The notes beneath the pieces are model-generated. The model saw only the letters and a program-made list of their open reading frames with translations. It had not been told where the DNA came from and did not search any database. A stretch of 64,000 bases of DNA from Aquificaceae bacterium (GTDB lineage: Bacteria > Aquificota > Aquificia > Aquificales > Aquificaceae): the NCBI GenBank assembly GCA_037481935.1, contig JBBFKQ010000003.1:62001-126000 (forward strand). The letters are read 5' to 3'. This document shows, one piece after another, positions 10,514 through 17,384 of this stretch. The translations under genes were made by a program, and so were the position numbers. Position 1 is the first letter of the stretch. The number at the start of each line of letters is the position of its first letter.

Positions 10514-12085
10514 ATGTTTGGTGCTACCTTTGGCATAGTGGCTCAGGGGCTTGAACTTTTCAGAAAGTCTGCAGACATCAGAAACAGAAACATACTGAAC
10601 GCCAACAATCCCGACTACGCCCAGGAAGACCCGGTCATAAAGAGCCTTGCACCCGTGGGTATAAGGCTGGAGGATATTCTCAGAAGTCAGAACTTTTACT
10701 ACATGTCTCTGAGAAATCAGAAGCTCTCGGTGGTCTCCTCCCTTGACACCGCCATAAAGGGAAACTCTCAGATAGAAAACCTCTTTCAGGAGTTTACTCA
10801 AGGGCTGGGGGGTAGCGAATACATAAACCGCTTTTTCACCGCCTACCAGAACCTGATGAAAGAGCCCACAAACGAAGGAGCAAGAAGTGAACTCTTAAAC
10901 TCTGCCCAGAGCCTTATTTCATACCTGAAGGACAGAAGAAAGGACATGGACAGAACCCTTGCCAGCACGGACTATGACATGAGGCAATACATAGGCAGGA
11001 TAAACACACTCACAAAAAAGATTGCTCAGATAAATCAGGAAATACTCACGGGCTATGCCCAGACTTACGCAAGAGGAAGAGATTACAAAAATCTTCTGGA
11101 TGAGAGAGATAGATATCTCAGAGAACTGTCTGAGCTTATAAACATACAGGTTCAGGAGGATAATATGGGCAGGGTAAGGGTGGAGACAAGCCAGGGCTTT
11201 GTGCTTGTAGAGGACAGATACAGCTGGGAGCTGAAATACGACTCTGGAAGCAGAAGAGTTATGTGGAAGTCAAAAGATGGTTCAGAGGTGGACATAAGCG
11301 GTCTCATAAGCGGAGGAAAAGTCAGAGGGCTTCTGGACTTTCAGAAAGACCTTCTGGATTACATAAACCAGCTTGAGGGGATAGGCAAAAAGCTCATAAG
11401 CGAGGTAAAACTGCCCCTTAACGCACAGGGAACGAACAGCTGGTTCTGGCTCAGAAATGTAAGCGACCCAACTGCACCCCTTGGCTTTTCAGGAAGCATA
11501 ACCTTTAACTTTCCCGGTGGCCCTGTGGTTATAAGCTACAACTCCACAGACAGCCTCAACGACATCATAAACGCCATAAACACAGACCCAACCCTCAGCC
11601 CCAACTTTACCGCAAGCCTTGTTCCAAACCCTGACGGAAGCTACACCATGCAGATAACAGCCAGCGACCCCAGCTATACTGTAGAGGAGAGCAACAACCT
11701 TATTCAAAGGTCTGAACCCCTCTTTACAGGAACGGGAATAGGGGACATGGCTCTGAACCCCAACATAAACACATACGTGCAGAACCTTGATTACGAAAAG
11801 GCTGACGAGTTTATGGACTTTTCAAGGAGCTGGTGGGAAGGTGTAAAGGCTCTATACAATGGGCTTGTAGATAGAGTTGCCTCAAGGCAGAATGACCTCA
11901 AAACAAAGCATGAGATAGAGAGGGCACTCCTTGACTCTCTGAACGCAAGGCTTCAGGAGATGCAGGGGGTTTCAATAGACAATGAATTTATTGAACTCAT
12001 GAAGCTCCAGAGGAGCTACGAAGCCCTTGCAAGAACCATAAACGCCATGGATGAGATGCTTCAGGCAACGCTGAATATGGTGTGA
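10514..12085 (+). CDS. flgK: Flagellar hook-associated protein 1
   Basis: A 523-residue rod/hook-family protein. The N terminus (ATFGIVAQGLELFRKSADIRNRNILNANNPDYA) is the conserved helical segment of axial proteins, and the C terminus (DNEFIELMKLQRSYEALARTINAMDEMLQATLNM) is the diagnostic partner helix. FlgK forms the hook-filament junction with FlgL and is exported by the flagellar type III system without a cleaved signal. GGGAGG lies 6-7 nt upstream of the ATG. flgL follows after 11 bp. A sigma-28 promoter upstream fits late expression. Confidence 0.93.
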   Translation: MFGATFGIVAQGLELFRKSADIRNRNILNANNPDYAQEDPVIKSLAPVGIRLEDILRSQNFYYMSLRNQKLSVVSSLDTAIKGNSQIENLFQEFTQGLGGSEYINRFFTAYQNLMKEPTNEGARSELLNSAQSLISYLKDRRKDMDRTLASTDYDMRQYIGRINTLTKKIAQINQEILTGYAQTYARGRDYKNLLDERDRYLRELSELINIQVQEDNMGRVRVETSQGFVLVEDRYSWELKYDSGSRRVMWKSKDGSEVDISGLISGGKVRGLLDFQKDLLDYINQLEGIGKKLISEVKLPLNAQGTNSWFWLRNVSDPTAPLGFSGSITFNFPGGPVVISYNSTDSLNDIINAINTDPTLSPNFTASLVPNPDGSYTMQITASDPSYTVEESNNLIQRSEPLFTGTGIGDMALNPNINTYVQNLDYEKADEFMDFSRSWWEGVKALYNGLVDRVASRQNDLKTKHEIERALLDSLNARLQEMQGVSIDNEFIELMKLQRSYEALARTINAMDEMLQATLNMV

Positions 12086-12096
12086 GGTGAGAGGCC

Positions 12097-13269
12097 ATGA
12101 AGGTGCCAGATAACCTGCTCTTTTCCCTGTTTCAGGAACAGGATGCAAGGATAAGAAAACAGCTTTCAGAAAAATCTCTTGAGATTGCCACCGGCAGGAA
12201 GTATCAGAGTATATCCGACGAGCCATCAGCCACCTACAATGTGCTTGAGCTTAAAAAAGAGATATCCCAGCTTTCTCAATATGCAAAGAACAGGCTGTTT
12301 GCGGACACAGCTCTGAGCTATTCAGACTTTAACCTGGGGAAGATAGAAGACAGTCTGAAACTCCTTTATGCAAAGACCATACAGGCTAAGAATCAGACGC
12401 TTCAGCCAGACCAGCTCTTGGCAATAGGAGAACTCTTTTCCTCAAGCCTAAGGTCTCTTCTTGACAGAGTAAACGACCAGCTGGGAGGAAACTACATCTT
12501 TGGAGGTGCAAGTCTTACTCAGAAGCCCTTTGATGATAACACACTTGAATACAGAGCTTCTTCAGAGGGTTTTAAGGTGTGGCTTTCAGACAGCTACAGG
12601 GTTGATGCCCTTCTGAACGGGGCAGAGACCTTTGGTCTCAACGTGGCAATCTCAAGGGCAACCTTTTCAAGCCCTGGCACAAACTTCAGCAACTCTGGCA
12701 CTTTGAATATAACGGTGGGAACCACCACCATCAGTGTAAACTACACCACGACCCAGACACTGAATGACCTCGTAACCCTTATAAATTCCAACTACTCCAG
12801 CACCCTTCAGGCGAAGGTCAGCCAGAACCCAGATGGGACTTACTCCCTTATGCTTATGCCTGTGGATATAGGTAAGGAAACATTTGTCTCTGACACCAGC
12901 GGTGGTGACTTTGATGTGGGTGCAACGGACTTTTACTCTCCTAACTTGCTTCAGGCAGTAAAAAGGGTGGGAGACAAGCTCAGCTCCGCACTCTATCCGG
13001 ATGACTCCGACCTTATGCTGCTACAGAGAGCCTTTGATAGGGTCGCCTTCAGAAGGTCTCAGGTGGGTGCAGTCCTCTCTCAGGTAAAGAACCTTCAGCC
13101 TGTGCAGGAAAACCTCACAGACAACCTGAATAAACAGAAGTCTGACCTTGAAGATGCAGAGCTTTCGCAGAGCATAATGGACTACACGCGCTACAGGCTT
13201 GCCTACGAAGCCCTCATGCGTATAGTGGCAGACCAGAGGGATATGAGCATTATAAGATATCTGAAATAA
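12097..13269 (+). CDS. flgL: Flagellar hook-associated protein 3
   Basis: A 390-residue flagellin-like junction protein. N-terminal VPDNLLFSLFQEQDARIRKQLSEKSLEIATGRKYQS and NQLGGNYIFGGAS, plus the C-terminal helix ending YEALMRIVADQRDMSIIRYLK, mark FlgL. A central domain (about residues 190-290) carries the surface-exposed loop region. It is co-transcribed with flgK. The next gene, dnaK, has its own strong promoter 117 bp downstream. Confidence 0.9.
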   Translation: MKVPDNLLFSLFQEQDARIRKQLSEKSLEIATGRKYQSISDEPSATYNVLELKKEISQLSQYAKNRLFADTALSYSDFNLGKIEDSLKLLYAKTIQAKNQTLQPDQLLAIGELFSSSLRSLLDRVNDQLGGNYIFGGASLTQKPFDDNTLEYRASSEGFKVWLSDSYRVDALLNGAETFGLNVAISRATFSSPGTNFSNSGTLNITVGTTTISVNYTTTQTLNDLVTLINSNYSSTLQAKVSQNPDGTYSLMLMPVDIGKETFVSDTSGGDFDVGATDFYSPNLLQAVKRVGDKLSSALYPDDSDLMLLQRAFDRVAFRRSQVGAVLSQVKNLQPVQENLTDNLNKQKSDLEDAELSQSIMDYTRYRLAYEALMRIVADQRDMSIIRYLK

Positions 13270-13314
13270 CCTCCAACTTAAGAAATTCCTATGACCGTAA
13301 ACCTTTGAGGTTAT
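13266..13314 (+). terminator. Weak candidate terminator/hairpin after flgL
   Basis: An 8-bp perfect inverted repeat (ATAACCTC at 13266-13273 and GAGGTTAT at 13307-13314) encloses 33 nt and is followed by ATTTCT. A shorter competing stem AACCT-TTG-AGGTT uses the same right arm. The long loop and poor U tract make termination uncertain. Confidence 0.25.
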
Positions 13315-13385
13315 ATTTCTGAGCACTTTTACAGACCTCTCTCTCAGTCTGCCCCCTTAACATTCTAAAAGTCATTATAAAAAAC

Positions 13386-13414
13386 TTGACATAAGTTTAC
13401 TAAAGTTTTATATT
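13386..13414 (+). promoter_or_regulatory. Strong sigma-70 promoter of dnaK
   Basis: A perfect TTGACA (13386-13391), a 17-bp spacer and TATATT (13409-13414) precede dnaK by 32 nt. No CIRCE inverted repeat (TTAGCACTC-N9-GAGTGCTAA) is present. Confidence 0.75.
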
Positions 13415-13446
13415 AGATAACACATTCTGGAAAAAGGAGGTGCCTT

Positions 13447-15312
13447 ATGGCGGAGAAGATAATAGGTATAGACCTTGGAACTACCAACTCGGTGGTGGCT
13501 GTGATTATAGGAGATGAGCCAGTGGTAATAGCCAATCAGGAGGGCTCAAGGCTTACGCCCTCTGTTGTCTCATGGACAAAGGAAAAAGAGGTGCTGGTGG
13601 GTGAGCCTGCAAAGAGGCGTGCCATCCTTGACCCAGAGAACACCGTCTACGAGTCTAAAAGGTTTATAGGTAGAAAGTATGAAGAGGTGCTTGATGAGGC
13701 AAAGAGAGTTTCCTACAAGGTGGTGGCGGACGAAAAGGGCGATGCCAGCTTTGAAATACCCAACATAGGAAGGACTGTTCGCCCGGAGGAGGTAGGTGCT
13801 CAGGTGCTCAAAAAGCTCAAAGAGGCTGCAGAGGCATACCTTGGAGAAAAGGTCACAAAGGCGGTAATAACCGTGCCCGCTTACTTCAACGAGCGTCAGA
13901 GACAGGCAACAAAGGATGCCGGTAAGATTGCAGGGCTTGAGGTGCTAAGAATCCTCAACGAGCCCACCGCTGCAGCTCTGGCATACGGGCTTGACAAGAA
14001 GAGCGATGTAAAGATTCTTGTCTATGACTTTGGAGGAGGAACCTTTGACGTCTCCATCCTTGAAGGTGGAGAGGGCGTTATAGAGGTAAAAGCTACCGCA
14101 GGAGACACTCACCTTGGGGGTGCCAACATAGACGAAAGAATCATGGAGTGGCTCATAGAAGAGTTCAAAAGAGAAACAGGCGTTGACCTCAGAAAGGACA
14201 GGACTGCCCTTCAGAGGCTCAAAGAAGCCAGCGAGCAGGCAAAGAAGGAGCTCTCCTTCAAGCTGGAGACTGAAATCAACCTGCCCTTTATAACCATAGA
14301 CCCATCCACCAACCAGCCATTGCACCTTCAGAAAAAGCTCACAAGGGCAAGGCTTGAGGAGATGATAAAGGACCTTGTGGACAGGACTATGGAGATAGTA
14401 AAGAGAGCCCTTGAGGATGCCAAGCTGAGACCTCAGGATATAGACGATGTGGTGCTGGTGGGAGGTTCCACGAGGATTCCTCTGGTCCAGCAGAGGATAA
14501 AGGACTTTTTTGGGAAGGAGCCCCACAAGGGCGTAAACCCCGACGAGGTGGTGGCAGTGGGTGCTGCCATACAGGCTGGTGTTCTATCTGGGGAAGTAAA
14601 GGAGATACTGCTAGTAGATGTGACACCTCTATCCCTGGGTGTGGAGACCTACGGTGGGGTTATGACGGTCCTTATACCCAGGAACACGCCCATACCTTAC
14701 AGAAAGTGTGAAACCTTCACCACCGCCAGCGACTATCAGACAGAGGTAGAGGTTCATGTGCTTCAGGGCGAGAGACCCATGGCTAGGGACAACAAGTCTC
14801 TGGGTAAATTCTATCTTACCGGCATACCACCAGCACCCAGAGGCGTTCCAAAGATAGAGGTGTGCTTTGACATAGACGTGGACGGTATTCTTCATGTGAC
14901 GGCAAAAGACCTTGGCACGGGTAAAGAGCAGTCCATAAGGGTTCAGGCATCTTCGGGACTCACGCAGGAAGAGATAGAGAAGATGGTAAAAGAAGCCCAG
15001 CTTCACGAGGAGGAGGACAGGAAGAAAAAAGAACTCGTGGAAGCCAAGAACCAGCTTGACCAGCATGTTTACAACCTTGAAAAGGTGCTGAAGGAAAACA
15101 GGGATAAAGTGCCCGCAGACGTGGTCTCTGAGGTAGAAAAGGCTATAGAAGAGGCAAAGAGGGTATTTGCCAGCTCACAGGATGTGCAGGAGGTAAGAAG
15201 GGCCACAGAGAAGGTGCTTGAGGTAGCTGGAAAGTTAGGAAGCTATCTTTATCAGGGACAGGCTACGCAGAAGGGTGAAGGTGGAGACGTAATAGAAGGC
15301 AAGCCCATGTGA
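13447..15312 (+). CDS. dnaK: Hsp70 chaperone DnaK
   Basis: A 621-residue Hsp70. The ATPase domain shows [28 protein letters not shown] and [13 protein letters not shown]; the substrate-binding domain follows the linker [15 protein letters not shown], with a charged helical lid at the C terminus. It folds nascent and stress-damaged proteins with DnaJ and GrpE in the cytoplasm. GrpE and DnaJ are not encoded in this window. AAGGAGG lies 7 nt before the ATG, and a near-consensus sigma-70 promoter lies upstream without a CIRCE element, so HrcA control is unlikely here. Confidence 0.97.
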
Positions 15313-15318
15313 TATAAT
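15313..15318 (+). promoter_or_regulatory. -10-like box before the LdtD gene
   Basis: TATAAT immediately follows the dnaK stop codon and ends 10 nt before the ATG at 15329. No -35 is visible at 17 bp. It may allow near-leaderless transcription of the downstream operon. Confidence 0.35.
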
Positions 15319-15320
15319 AA

Positions 15321-15337
15321 GACCGCCTATGGCGGTC
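15321..15337 (+). terminator. Perfect 7-bp hairpin enclosing a start codon
   Basis: GACCGCC (15321-15327), loop TAT, GGCGGTC (15331-15337), then a T/C-rich stretch CCCTTCCTTTTCTC. It sits 8 nt after the dnaK stop and could terminate dnaK mRNA. The ATG of the next gene (15329) begins in its loop, so it could also gate translation. Which role applies is not determined. Confidence 0.4.
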
Positions 15338-16842
15338 GCCCTTCCTTTTCTCATAATTCTTCTTGCCTTAGAAACTGCATTATCTTATGAGAAAAAGATA
15401 AGGGAAAACTGGTCAAAGTTAGCCTATCCTCAGAAGGTTTATCAGCTATACGGTCTTCTGGGCTTCAGATGCATATGGTATTGTGATGGCAGAGCTACGG
15501 AGAACTTTCAAACCCTGCAGAGCATACTCAGGGAGGTTGTCCACCTGGACTTGACCCCAGAGATTACAGACCGGTTAAAGACCTTGACCCAGAGCTTGCC
15601 ACAAGCGACAGCCTGCTCAGGCTTGCATACGACCTCTACTATGGTAGGACAAGACCCTCAGAACTCTACAGGGGCTGGAGCGTTCCAAAAAGGCAGGACA
15701 GGGTTGTTGAAAAGGTTGCAGCTCTGATAAGGGAAGAGAGACTGGGGGACTTGCTGAGGGAAATCACACCCAAGAGCCAGGAATACTGGTTCCTTGTAGA
15801 ACAGGCAAAGTCTCTGCAAGAGCTATCTTCCATTGAATGGAAGCCCATAAGGCTGTCAAGACACCTGCGTCATGGAGACAGAAGCACCTGCCTTGAGGAG
15901 ATAAGGTTCAGGCTCTTTCTTCTTGGAGACATTAGAGAATACACCCCCTCTGATTTTTTTGACCATACACTGCTTGAGGCAGTAAAAAGATTTCAAAAAA
16001 GACACGGGCTGCCAGAGACGGGAACAATTGGTTCAAAGACCATTGCCGAGCTCAACATCAGCCCAGAAGAGAGGTTGATGCAGGTATACCTGAACCTTGA
16101 AAAGCACAGATGGTTGCCAGAAGACTTTGAAAGAGCCGTGGTGGTAAACATACCATCCTTTGAGCTTTTTCTGATAAACAAAAATTCTGTGGAGCTGCAC
16201 TCTAAGGTGATAGTGGGCAGGAATTACAGAGAAGACTTCAGGCCTACGCCAATACTTTACAGCAGGATAGAGAGCCTCACCATAAATCCTTCATGGCATG
16301 TTCCCAGAAGCATCTCCGTCAAGGACATACTACCCAGAGTGAGAAAGGACCCAGATTACCTCAGAAAAAAGAGCTTCAGAGTCTTTCTTGGAGGTGAGGA
16401 GGTTGACCCTCTGCAGATAGACTGGAGCTTATACAGTGAGAAAAATTTTCCCTTCAGGCTTGTGCAGTCCCCAGGACCACAGAACGCCCTTGGCAGGATA
16501 AAGTTCAACTTCCAGAACCCCTTTGATGTCTACCTGCACGACACGCCTGATGTGGAACTTTTTAAAAAGCCAAAAAGAGCCTTTAGCTCAGGATGTATAA
16601 GGGTAGAAAAGGCAAAGGAGCTTGCTCTGGCACTTCTTGGAGAGGGATGGAACTCAAAGAAGTTGGAAAACCTCATAAAAGAACAGCAGACCCAGACCCT
16701 CAGCCTCAGAAACCCTATACCCATATACATACTCTACCTTACCGCCTTTGAAAGGGATGGCGAGCTTCATTTCAGAGAAGACATATACGGGTATGATACA
16801 ATTTTGTCCCGTGCACTTTCAAAAGTTGGAGGCAGGAAATGA
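15329..16842 (+). pseudogene. YcbB/LdtD-type L,D-transpeptidase with apparent frameshift
   Basis: Two consecutive frames together encode a YcbB-like protein of about 504 residues. The first frame gives a signal peptide (MAVALPFLIILLALETALS) and scaffold start (GFRCIWYCDGRATENFQTLQ). Near 15540-15555 the reading shifts; the second frame resumes as GLDPRDYRPVKDLDPELA and continues open to 16842. The second part has a peptidoglycan-binding-like segment (VKRFQKRHGLPETGTIG) and the YkuD catalytic site (HDT, then SSGCIRVEKA with the nucleophile cysteine). One base appears to be missing; no classic slippery heptamer is seen. This is either a sequencing error or an inactivating mutation. The enzyme would make 3-3 cross-links in the periplasm. 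The next gene overlaps by ATGA, as in the E. coli ycbB-ycbK order. Confidence 0.8.
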
Positions 16843-17384
16843 CAAGGAGAGAACTTCTAAGGTCAATGGGATACATAGGATGCATGCTTCTGACAGGTTC
16901 TTTTTCCTACGCCTCAGTTTCTGGAATTAGGGGTCTTTCAGAAGGAGCCAGGTCCCTCAACTTATACTCTGTAAACACCGGGGAGAGCCTTAAGGTTGCC
17001 TACTGGGTGGATGGAGAGTATATAGATAGTTCTCTGAAAGAAATAAACTGGCTTCTGAGGGATTACAGAAGTGGAGAGGTAGCTCCCGTAGATTTAAAGC
17101 TTCTTGACCTTCTTTTCCTCATAACCAGACTTTCTAACAGGGAAAGGATAGAGGTAATATCTGGCTACAGGTCACCATCTACAAACGCTTACCTTCACAG
17201 GACAAAAAGGGGCGTAGCAAAAGACAGCTACCACACGCGCGGGAGGGCTGTTGACATAAGGCTGGAGGGCATGAGCCTGAGCAGTCTCAGAGATCTGGCA
17301 ATAAACCTGCGTGCTGGTGGTGTTGGATACTATCCCAGGTCTGGTTTTGTGCATCTTGATACTGGACCCTTCAGGTGCTGGTAA
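16839..17384 (+). CDS. YcbK/MepK-like DUF882 peptidoglycan endopeptidase (M15 fold)
   Basis: A 181-residue protein with an N-terminal twin-arginine-like export signal (TRRELLRSMG followed by a hydrophobic stretch). The catalytic region has SGYRSPSTNAYL, SYHTRGRAVDIRL and FVHLDTGPFRCW, giving the M15-type H-x6-D...H zinc ligands. E. coli MepK cuts 3-3 and 3-4 cross-links and its gene follows ldtD, the same order as here. It starts within the stop of the transpeptidase gene (ATGA) and ends TAATG with thpR. Catalytic residues appear intact. Confidence 0.88.
   Translation: MTRRELLRSMGYIGCMLLTGSFSYASVSGIRGLSEGARSLNLYSVNTGESLKVAYWVDGEYIDSSLKEINWLLRDYRSGEVAPVDLKLLDLLFLITRLSNRERIEVISGYRSPSTNAYLHRTKRGVAKDSYHTRGRAVDIRLEGMSLSSLRDLAINLRAGGVGYYPRSGFVHLDTGPFRCW

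What the first reader, a model, noticed from the sequence alone, without database searches (positions are those of the whole stretch)
15313..15337. Start codon of the LdtD gene lies in the loop of a perfect GC-rich hairpin between dnaK and the cell wall operon
GACCGCC-TAT-GGCGGTC places the ATG at 15329 across the loop and right arm, 8 nt after the dnaK stop, with TATAAT in between. The same element could end dnaK transcription and hide the next start codon from ribosomes, opening only at high temperature (a thermosensor-like arrangement next to a heat-shock gene) or when transcription starts within it.
Basis: inference. Interest (0 to 1): 0.5.

Follow-up and report, generated by a model that had tools for sequence, protein, structure and literature searches.

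The report
Conserved hairpin hiding ldtD start codon
In a genus of Aquificaceae bacteria, a conserved palindrome just after the chaperone gene dnaK covers the start codon of a cell-wall gene, and a promoter-like signal placed so that its message would begin inside the palindrome may make the gene readable only from its own transcript.

Summary
In detail: GACCGCC-TAT-GGCGGTC lies at 15321-15337, 8 nt after the dnaK stop, with the ldtD ATG at 15329. It is not chance. All 11 congeneric genomes in which the junction could be read carry TGATATAAT-N(2-3)-palindrome-ATG, once per genome. One species has two compensatory pairs. The left arm is far more conserved than dnaK fourfold sites.
TGATATAAT fits an extended -10 promoter that includes the dnaK stop. 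TATAAT 6-10 nt before ATG is enriched in this genome; ldtD has 10-12 nt, at the edge of that class, so the start site should fall inside the left arm. Own-promoter mRNA would then lack the stem; dnaK read-through mRNA would form it. In folding, ldtD has the largest read-through minus own-transcript opening cost of 61 short-leader ORFs.
Best reading (about 0.48): a promoter-nested hairpin silencing read-through, working like phage T4 gene e. Main rival (about 0.28): a DNA operator over the start site. Termination has mixed support (6 of 11 species have a T-rich tail, not this one); heat sensing is weak. ldtD is frameshifted in this window. No expression data were available.

The parts
13447..15312 (+). 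dnaK (Hsp70), upstream gene; its TGA stop supplies the TG of the extended -10
   Evidence: Pfam HSP70 E 5e-249; stop TGA in 11 of 11 congeners, against 5 of 18 other-genus loci readable
15310..15318 (+). TGATATAAT, putative extended -10 promoter element of ldtD, overlapping the dnaK stop
   Evidence: 9 of 9 letters invariant in 11 of 11 congeners; TATAAT shortly before ATG is enriched in this genome; the TGnTATAAT consensus is recalled; the -35-dependent scan does not list it
15319..15320 (+). variable spacer (2 nt here, 3 nt in the other ten)
15321..15327 (+). left arm GACCGCC; inferred transcription start near 15324-15325 falls inside it
   Evidence: 5 of 7 positions the same in 11 of 11 and 2 of 7 in 10 of 11; start position inferred from -10 spacing, not mapped
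15328..15330 (+). loop TAT (TAT, CAT, AAT or CTAT in congeners), holding the A and T of the start codon
15331..15337 (+). right arm GGCGGTC: G of ATG plus codons 2-3 (GCG GTC)
   Evidence: the same in 10 of 11, compensatory in G012; GCG is 19 of 152 Ala and GTC 32 of 211 Val codons from codon 4 on in eight intact congener ldtD genes
15329..15727 (+). ldtD 5' ORF (signal peptide and N-terminal part), shortened by a frameshift
   Evidence: no Pfam match on its own
15751..16842 (+). rest of ldtD in another frame: PG_binding_1 and YkuD L,D-transpeptidase
   Evidence: Pfam; alignment A1 of eight relatives matches YcbB structures
16839..17384 (+). mepK, peptidoglycan L,D-endopeptidase, overlapping the end of ldtD by 4 nt
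   Evidence: NCBIfam NF053624 above cut-off; follows ldtD in 10 of 11 congeners, and the 3' remnant of ldtD on another contig in G002

Best explanation
A promoter-nested start-codon hairpin. ldtD has its own extended -10 promoter (TGATATAAT) built into the dnaK stop codon. RNA polymerase starting there would begin inside the left arm, giving an mRNA with a leader of about 4-6 nt that cannot form the full stem, so the AUG is open to the short-leader initiation that this lineage appears to use. RNA polymerase reading through from dnaK transcribes both arms; the 7-bp stem forms and puts A and U of the AUG in a triloop and G in the closing pair, with no Shine-Dalgarno sequence to help, so the read-through message is poorly translated. 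The cell-wall genes ldtD-mepK are thus insulated from dnaK transcription and follow their own promoter. Shown: anatomy, conservation, covariation, a promoter-like signal and its positional class in the genome, and a computed difference in accessibility. Inferred: the start site, read-through, translational silencing and the purpose.
For: Conserved once per genome in 11 of 14 congeners, controls 0. Two compensatory pairs in G012, 77 of 77 cells paired; a 4-nt loop in G009 keeps the stem. Left arm: 5 of 7 positions the same in 11 of 11 and 2 in 10 of 11, against 5 of 212 dnaK fourfold sites the same in all 11 and 26 of 212 in at least 10; the adjacent spacer varies. Right arm keeps uncommon codons GCG and GTC. 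TATAAT-N(3-14)-ATG: 319 matches against 67 for the reversed pattern in the whole own genome, spacing peak at 7 nt. Opening cost around the AUG, read-through vs own transcript at 75 C: 7.2 vs 1.7 kcal/mol here, mean 7.6 vs 1.3 over 11 species; largest difference (5.5) of 61 short-leader ORFs including itself, median 1.5. Control: among 12 readable orthologues of another short-leader gene, 10 keep TATAAT but the leader varies and the weak stem of G000 is in none of the other 11 (by eye). T4 gene e is a worked precedent (PMC3014915, passages).
Against: No 5'-end mapping or expression data. Covariation comes from one species. Near-invariance of both arms in 10 of 11 species is more than pairing alone needs and suggests sequence-specific recognition. 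The -10 to ATG distance is 10 nt in the window but 11 in nine congeners and 12 in G009, where the genome sample has few cases (6 and 4, near the background of about 2-9 per distance; 1 and 3 of 61 ORFs), so ldtD is at the edge of the short-leader class. Six of 11 species have a T-rich tail that would also fit a terminator. The palindrome persists in G002, where ldtD is broken and split between contigs, and in G000 and G006 with a frameshift. Folding is extrapolated to 75-85 C, start sites were assumed, and shorter RNAs are less structured anyway. G017 has dnaK-ldtD with a -10-like box but no stem.
Confidence: 0.48

Rival explanations
1. A DNA operator: a dimeric repressor binds the 17-bp dyad over the transcription start of the ldtD promoter and blocks transcription; the hairpin potential is a by-product of the symmetry.
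For: Dyad placed over the inferred start site just after a -10-like box; letters nearly invariant in both arms; the G012 change is symmetric and would fit a co-evolved single-site repressor.
Against: One copy per genome: 7 matches with up to 3 mismatches in the own genome, the site itself and its own complement included, against 6 for the reversed control; other spacings N0-20 only in G010 and G008, two each. None of the five ORFs scanned at 13447-17938 matches a regulator family; genes further out were not scanned. Half-site distance changes by 1 bp in G009.
Confidence: 0.28
2. The stem is the 3' end signal of dnaK mRNA (terminator or exonuclease barrier), and the ATG inside it is incidental.
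For: It lies 8-9 nt after the stop; 6 of 11 species have 5 or more T in 8 nt starting 0-2 nt after the stem; G002, where ldtD is decayed, has TTTCTTTC right after it; two loci of another genus have a different stem after dnaK (L026, L027, by eye).
Against: The other 5 of 11, the window included, lack the T run (1-4 T), and T-rich codons are expected in a hydrophobic signal peptide anyway; does not explain the invariant TGATATAAT or why the ATG stays in the loop in 11 of 11; not listed on the plus strand.
Confidence: 0.12
3. An RNA thermosensor that lets heat-shock read-through express ldtD.
For: The start codon is in a stem next to a chaperone gene; the stem opens gradually with heat.
Against: Computed midpoint near 93-95 C, about 91% closed at 75 C and 82-84% at 85 C; in all 11 species only Watson-Crick pairs, no mismatches or G-U; no CIRCE box in the window; the only Rfam match over 13250-15700 is far below its gathering score and on the other strand.
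Confidence: 0.05
4. Translational coupling: ribosomes ending dnaK open the stem and restart at ldtD.
For: Close spacing; dnaK-ldtD adjacency also in G017.
Against: The left arm starts 8-9 nt after the stop, about at the leading edge of a ribosome stopped there (recalled toeprint geometry), so little of the stem would be opened; no Shine-Dalgarno sequence; does not explain the -10.
Confidence: 0.05

Closest known systems
Phage T4 gene e (lysozyme) leader, with soc, gene 49 and I-TevI (review PMC3014915, passages seen)
   Same: Long upstream-initiated transcripts form a stem that sequesters the initiation region; transcripts from promoters next to the gene lack the 5' strand and are well translated; gene e also encodes a cell-wall enzyme
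   Different: Here in a bacterial chromosome, with an extended -10-like promoter, an inferred leader of only about 4-6 nt, no Shine-Dalgarno sequence, and the AUG itself in the loop; no experiment yet
IS10/IS50 protection from read-through transcription (fold-back inhibition; recalled, the term did not occur in the papers listed)
   Same: Read-through RNA folds over the start region while own-promoter RNA does not
   Different: A mobile-element end, not a housekeeping junction
TA-led leaderless genes of bacteria, Aquifex aeolicus included (PMC3160421, passages seen)
   Same: TANNNT box around 12 bp upstream of the start codon, no Shine-Dalgarno sequence
   Different: ldtD has a slightly longer leader and a conserved palindrome over the start; the one other short-leader gene followed here has no conserved stem
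RNA thermometers (recalled)
   Same: Start region in a stem
   Different: GC-rich stem with perfect pairs and a computed midpoint near 93-95 C; no known family at its gathering score

Membership tests
T4 gene e-type promoter-nested translational hairpin | Start region paired on the long (upstream-initiated) transcript | tested here: met
   7-bp stem in 11 of 11 readable congeners, 77 of 77 cells paired; computed opening cost 7.2 kcal/mol at 75 C
T4 gene e-type promoter-nested translational hairpin | A nearby promoter whose transcript lacks the 5' strand of the stem | tested here: inconclusive
   Invariant TGATATAAT, but at 10-12 nt from the ATG it is at the edge of the genome's short-leader class; start site not mapped
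T4 gene e-type promoter-nested translational hairpin | Translation of the long transcript is repressed relative to the short one | not testable with these tools
   Needs a reporter or in vitro translation
DNA operator | Binding by a sequence-specific regulator | not testable with these tools
   Dyad present; single copy
Intrinsic terminator | G/C stem followed by a T run on the same strand | tested here: inconclusive
RNA thermometer | Structure that opens within the growth range | tested here: not met
   Computed midpoint near 93-95 C; computation only, and the growth range is recalled for the family
Leaderless or short-leader gene | TATAAT-like box shortly before the ATG, no Shine-Dalgarno sequence | tested here: met
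   10 nt here, 11 in nine congeners, 12 in G009, at the edge of the class, which is enriched at 6-10 nt; by eye no Shine-Dalgarno sequence in 15300-15328

The most novel reading that the evidence does not exclude
A chromosomal read-through insulator: a bacterium with widespread short-leader transcription places a promoter in a stop codon and a stem over the next start codon, so that one gene pair yields silent (long) and active (short) messages for the same protein, protecting cell-wall enzymes from chaperone-gene transcription without a terminator.
Probability: 0.43. Interest if true: 0.6.

Novelty: new variant of a known kind. Interest (0 to 1): 0.47.

Why it matters
If true, it shows how bacteria with short-leader mRNAs can keep a gene separate from a neighbour with almost no room between them: the message's own 5' end decides whether it is translated. 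It carries a device known from phage T4 lysozyme to a chromosomal cell-wall operon, ldtD-mepK, whose products by family make and cut 3-3 crosslinks (recalled). It gives a sharp, cheap test, long against short transcript.

Tried and rejected
Thermosensor: computed opening is too high and too gradual. Regulon operator: no second site beyond chance. CIRCE: none in the window. Known RNA family: one match far below its gathering score. A second possible case of the same architecture (ACTTC-ATG-GAAGT, G000 C1:127152) was followed; its stem is in none of the other 11 readable orthologues. In four genomes of another family where ldtD is not after dnaK (L059-L062) no such palindrome is seen in the 90 nt upstream of the first possible start. 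Literature: searches listed no paper recognisable by title or abstract start as describing this element (two returned nothing); I opened passages of two papers only; subscription papers are mostly not held.

Slips: one search read many loci on the wrong strand and was replaced; the row of L020 picked a wrong ORF and was left out of the counts; one search aligned one locus in the wrong orientation and was dropped; A3 places the extra base of G009 inside the left arm, which does not change the pair letters counted. L174 was not read at the gene start and was left out, leaving 12 of 13. In one search the count of all 7-bp stems in C1 is inflated by 183 N, so only the G/C-rich counts are used.

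Full report
What is there. The window reads dnaK TGA (15310-15312), TATAAT (15313-15318), AA, GACCGCC (15321-15327), TAT, GGCGGTC (15331-15337), with ATG at 15329. The window lies in contig C3 of a 1.69-Mb draft genome. The downstream gene is an L,D-transpeptidase of the YcbB/LdtD kind: Pfam YkuD and PG_binding_1 on the window's own second ORF, YcbB structures with an alignment of eight relatives, and for the G007 copy an NCBIfam L,D-transpeptidase equivalog below its cut-off (291.5 against 425), so 'LdtD-like' is the safe name. It is followed by mepK (NCBIfam equivalog above cut-off) and a LigT-family gene.

Conservation. dnaK was searched in 61 genomes and the 30 best loci were fetched. In the 11 genus members among them (G000, G002, G003, G004, G006-G010, G012, G013) the dnaK stop is the TGA of TGATATAAT, followed by 2-3 free bases and the palindrome with ATG in its loop. 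A genus-wide pattern search found it in 11 of 14 genomes, once each, with no control match; the other three (G001, G005, G011) show neither a full dnaK nor ldtD. Of the 19 loci outside the genus, 18 were read (L020 was misread) and none has the element; one, G017 of a neighbouring genus, also has ldtD after dnaK, with TTTAAAAT before the ATG but no such stem. The LdtD alignment matched 16 of 112 genomes of the order: these 11, G017 and four of another family.

Selection on both arms. In G012 the arms read GGTCGCC and GGCGACC: two neighbouring pairs changed on both sides. Over 11 species 77 of 77 cells pair; 5 pairs never vary and 2 have a double change; 5 of 500 shuffles reach this, and it rests on one species. 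G009 has a 4-nt loop and keeps the stem. Of fourfold sites in dnaK, 5 of 212 are the same in all 11 species and 26 of 212 in at least 10; the 7 left-arm letters, outside any gene, are the same in all 11 (5) or in 10 (2). The right arm fixes codons 2 and 3 as GCG and (in 10 of 11) GTC, which make up 19 of 152 Ala and 32 of 211 Val codons in eight intact ldtD genes. The encoded signal peptides begin MAV or MAT and by eye lack Lys/Arg before the hydrophobic stretch in 11 of 11, unlike G017 (MPK) and two Thermodesulfobacterium copies (MKK). I read this as nucleotide constraint overriding the usual peptide pattern (inference).

Promoter. TGATATAAT matches the extended -10 consensus (recalled) and is the same in 11 of 11. 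In the own genome TATAAT-N(3-14)-ATG occurs 319 times against 67 for the reversed pattern; in a 464-kb sample the spacing peaks at 7 nt (25 cases), with 10-13 cases at 6 and at 8-10, then 6 at 11 and 4 at 12, near background. Leaderless TA-led genes are described for Aquifex aeolicus (PMC3160421, passages). ldtD has 10 nt here, 11 in nine congeners and 12 in G009: the edge of the class. With a start 7 nt after the box (assumed) its mRNA begins in the left arm with a leader of 4-6 nt. As a control, among 12 readable orthologues of another short-leader gene 10 keep TATAAT but not the bases between it and the ATG.

Folding. The isolated stem is -11.6 kcal/mol at 37 C and -3.8 at 75 C, with its midpoint near 93-95 C (higher for the 4-nt loop of G009). 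The cost of clearing -4 to +12 around the AUG at 75 C is 7.2 on the read-through RNA and 1.7 on the own RNA, mean 7.6 and 1.3 over 11 species. Among 61 short-leader ORFs of the genome sample, ldtD has the largest difference (5.5; median 1.5) and the second-largest read-through cost. The start sites are assumed and the parameters extrapolated.

Mechanism. The simplest account of an invariant promoter-like box plus an invariant stem whose left arm would be cut by the transcription start is that long and short messages differ in whether the start codon is free. This is how T4 gene e works: early long transcripts are sequestered, late-promoter transcripts lack the 5' strand, with a 100-fold effect quoted (PMC3014915, passages). 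The rival that I cannot exclude is a repressor operator: the arms are more conserved in letters than pairing needs. Against it are the single copy per genome, the altered half-site distance in G009 and no regulator family among the five ORFs scanned. The thermosensor reading is weak.

Against my reading. ldtD is frameshifted in this window and in G006, and is broken and split between contigs in G002, yet the palindrome is perfect in all three; this may be recent decay, sequencing error, a benefit for mepK from the promoter, or a role for dnaK mRNA. No expression data were available.

Verdict. A real, conserved, constrained element. It is a new variant of a known kind.

Noticed in passing
window 15329-16842: ldtD is broken by a frameshift near 15540 (two ORFs in different frames); intact copies exist in eight congeners, broken ones also in G006 and G002. 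Sequencing error is not excluded.
   Followed up: partly
own genome G000: TATAAT boxes 6-10 nt before ATG are strongly enriched (N3-14: 319 vs 67 controls; spacing): short-leader or leaderless genes look widespread in this genome.
   Followed up: partly
window 15329-17384: ldtD and mepK overlap by 4 nt in the window and are neighbours in 10 of 11 congeners: by family a maker and a cutter of 3-3 peptidoglycan crosslinks side by side.
   Followed up: partly
window 15329-15400 and congeners: The LdtD signal peptides of the genus lack Lys/Arg before the hydrophobic stretch (MAV/MAT start), unlike outgroups.
   Followed up: partly
window 10514-15312: dnaK sits downstream of two long ORFs that look flgK- and flgL-like (recalled, not tested by a family search), with a sigma-70-like match at 13386-13414 and no CIRCE box.
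   Followed up: no
   Followed up: no
G002 C14 and C100 (L014, L066): The ldtD 5' remnant and the ldtD 3' end with mepK lie on different contigs, so the operon looks split.
   Followed up: partly
G000:C1:127152 (L167): A second short-leader gene with ATG in the loop of a 5-bp stem (ACTTC-ATG-GAAGT); the stem is in none of the other 11 readable orthologues.
   Followed up: yes
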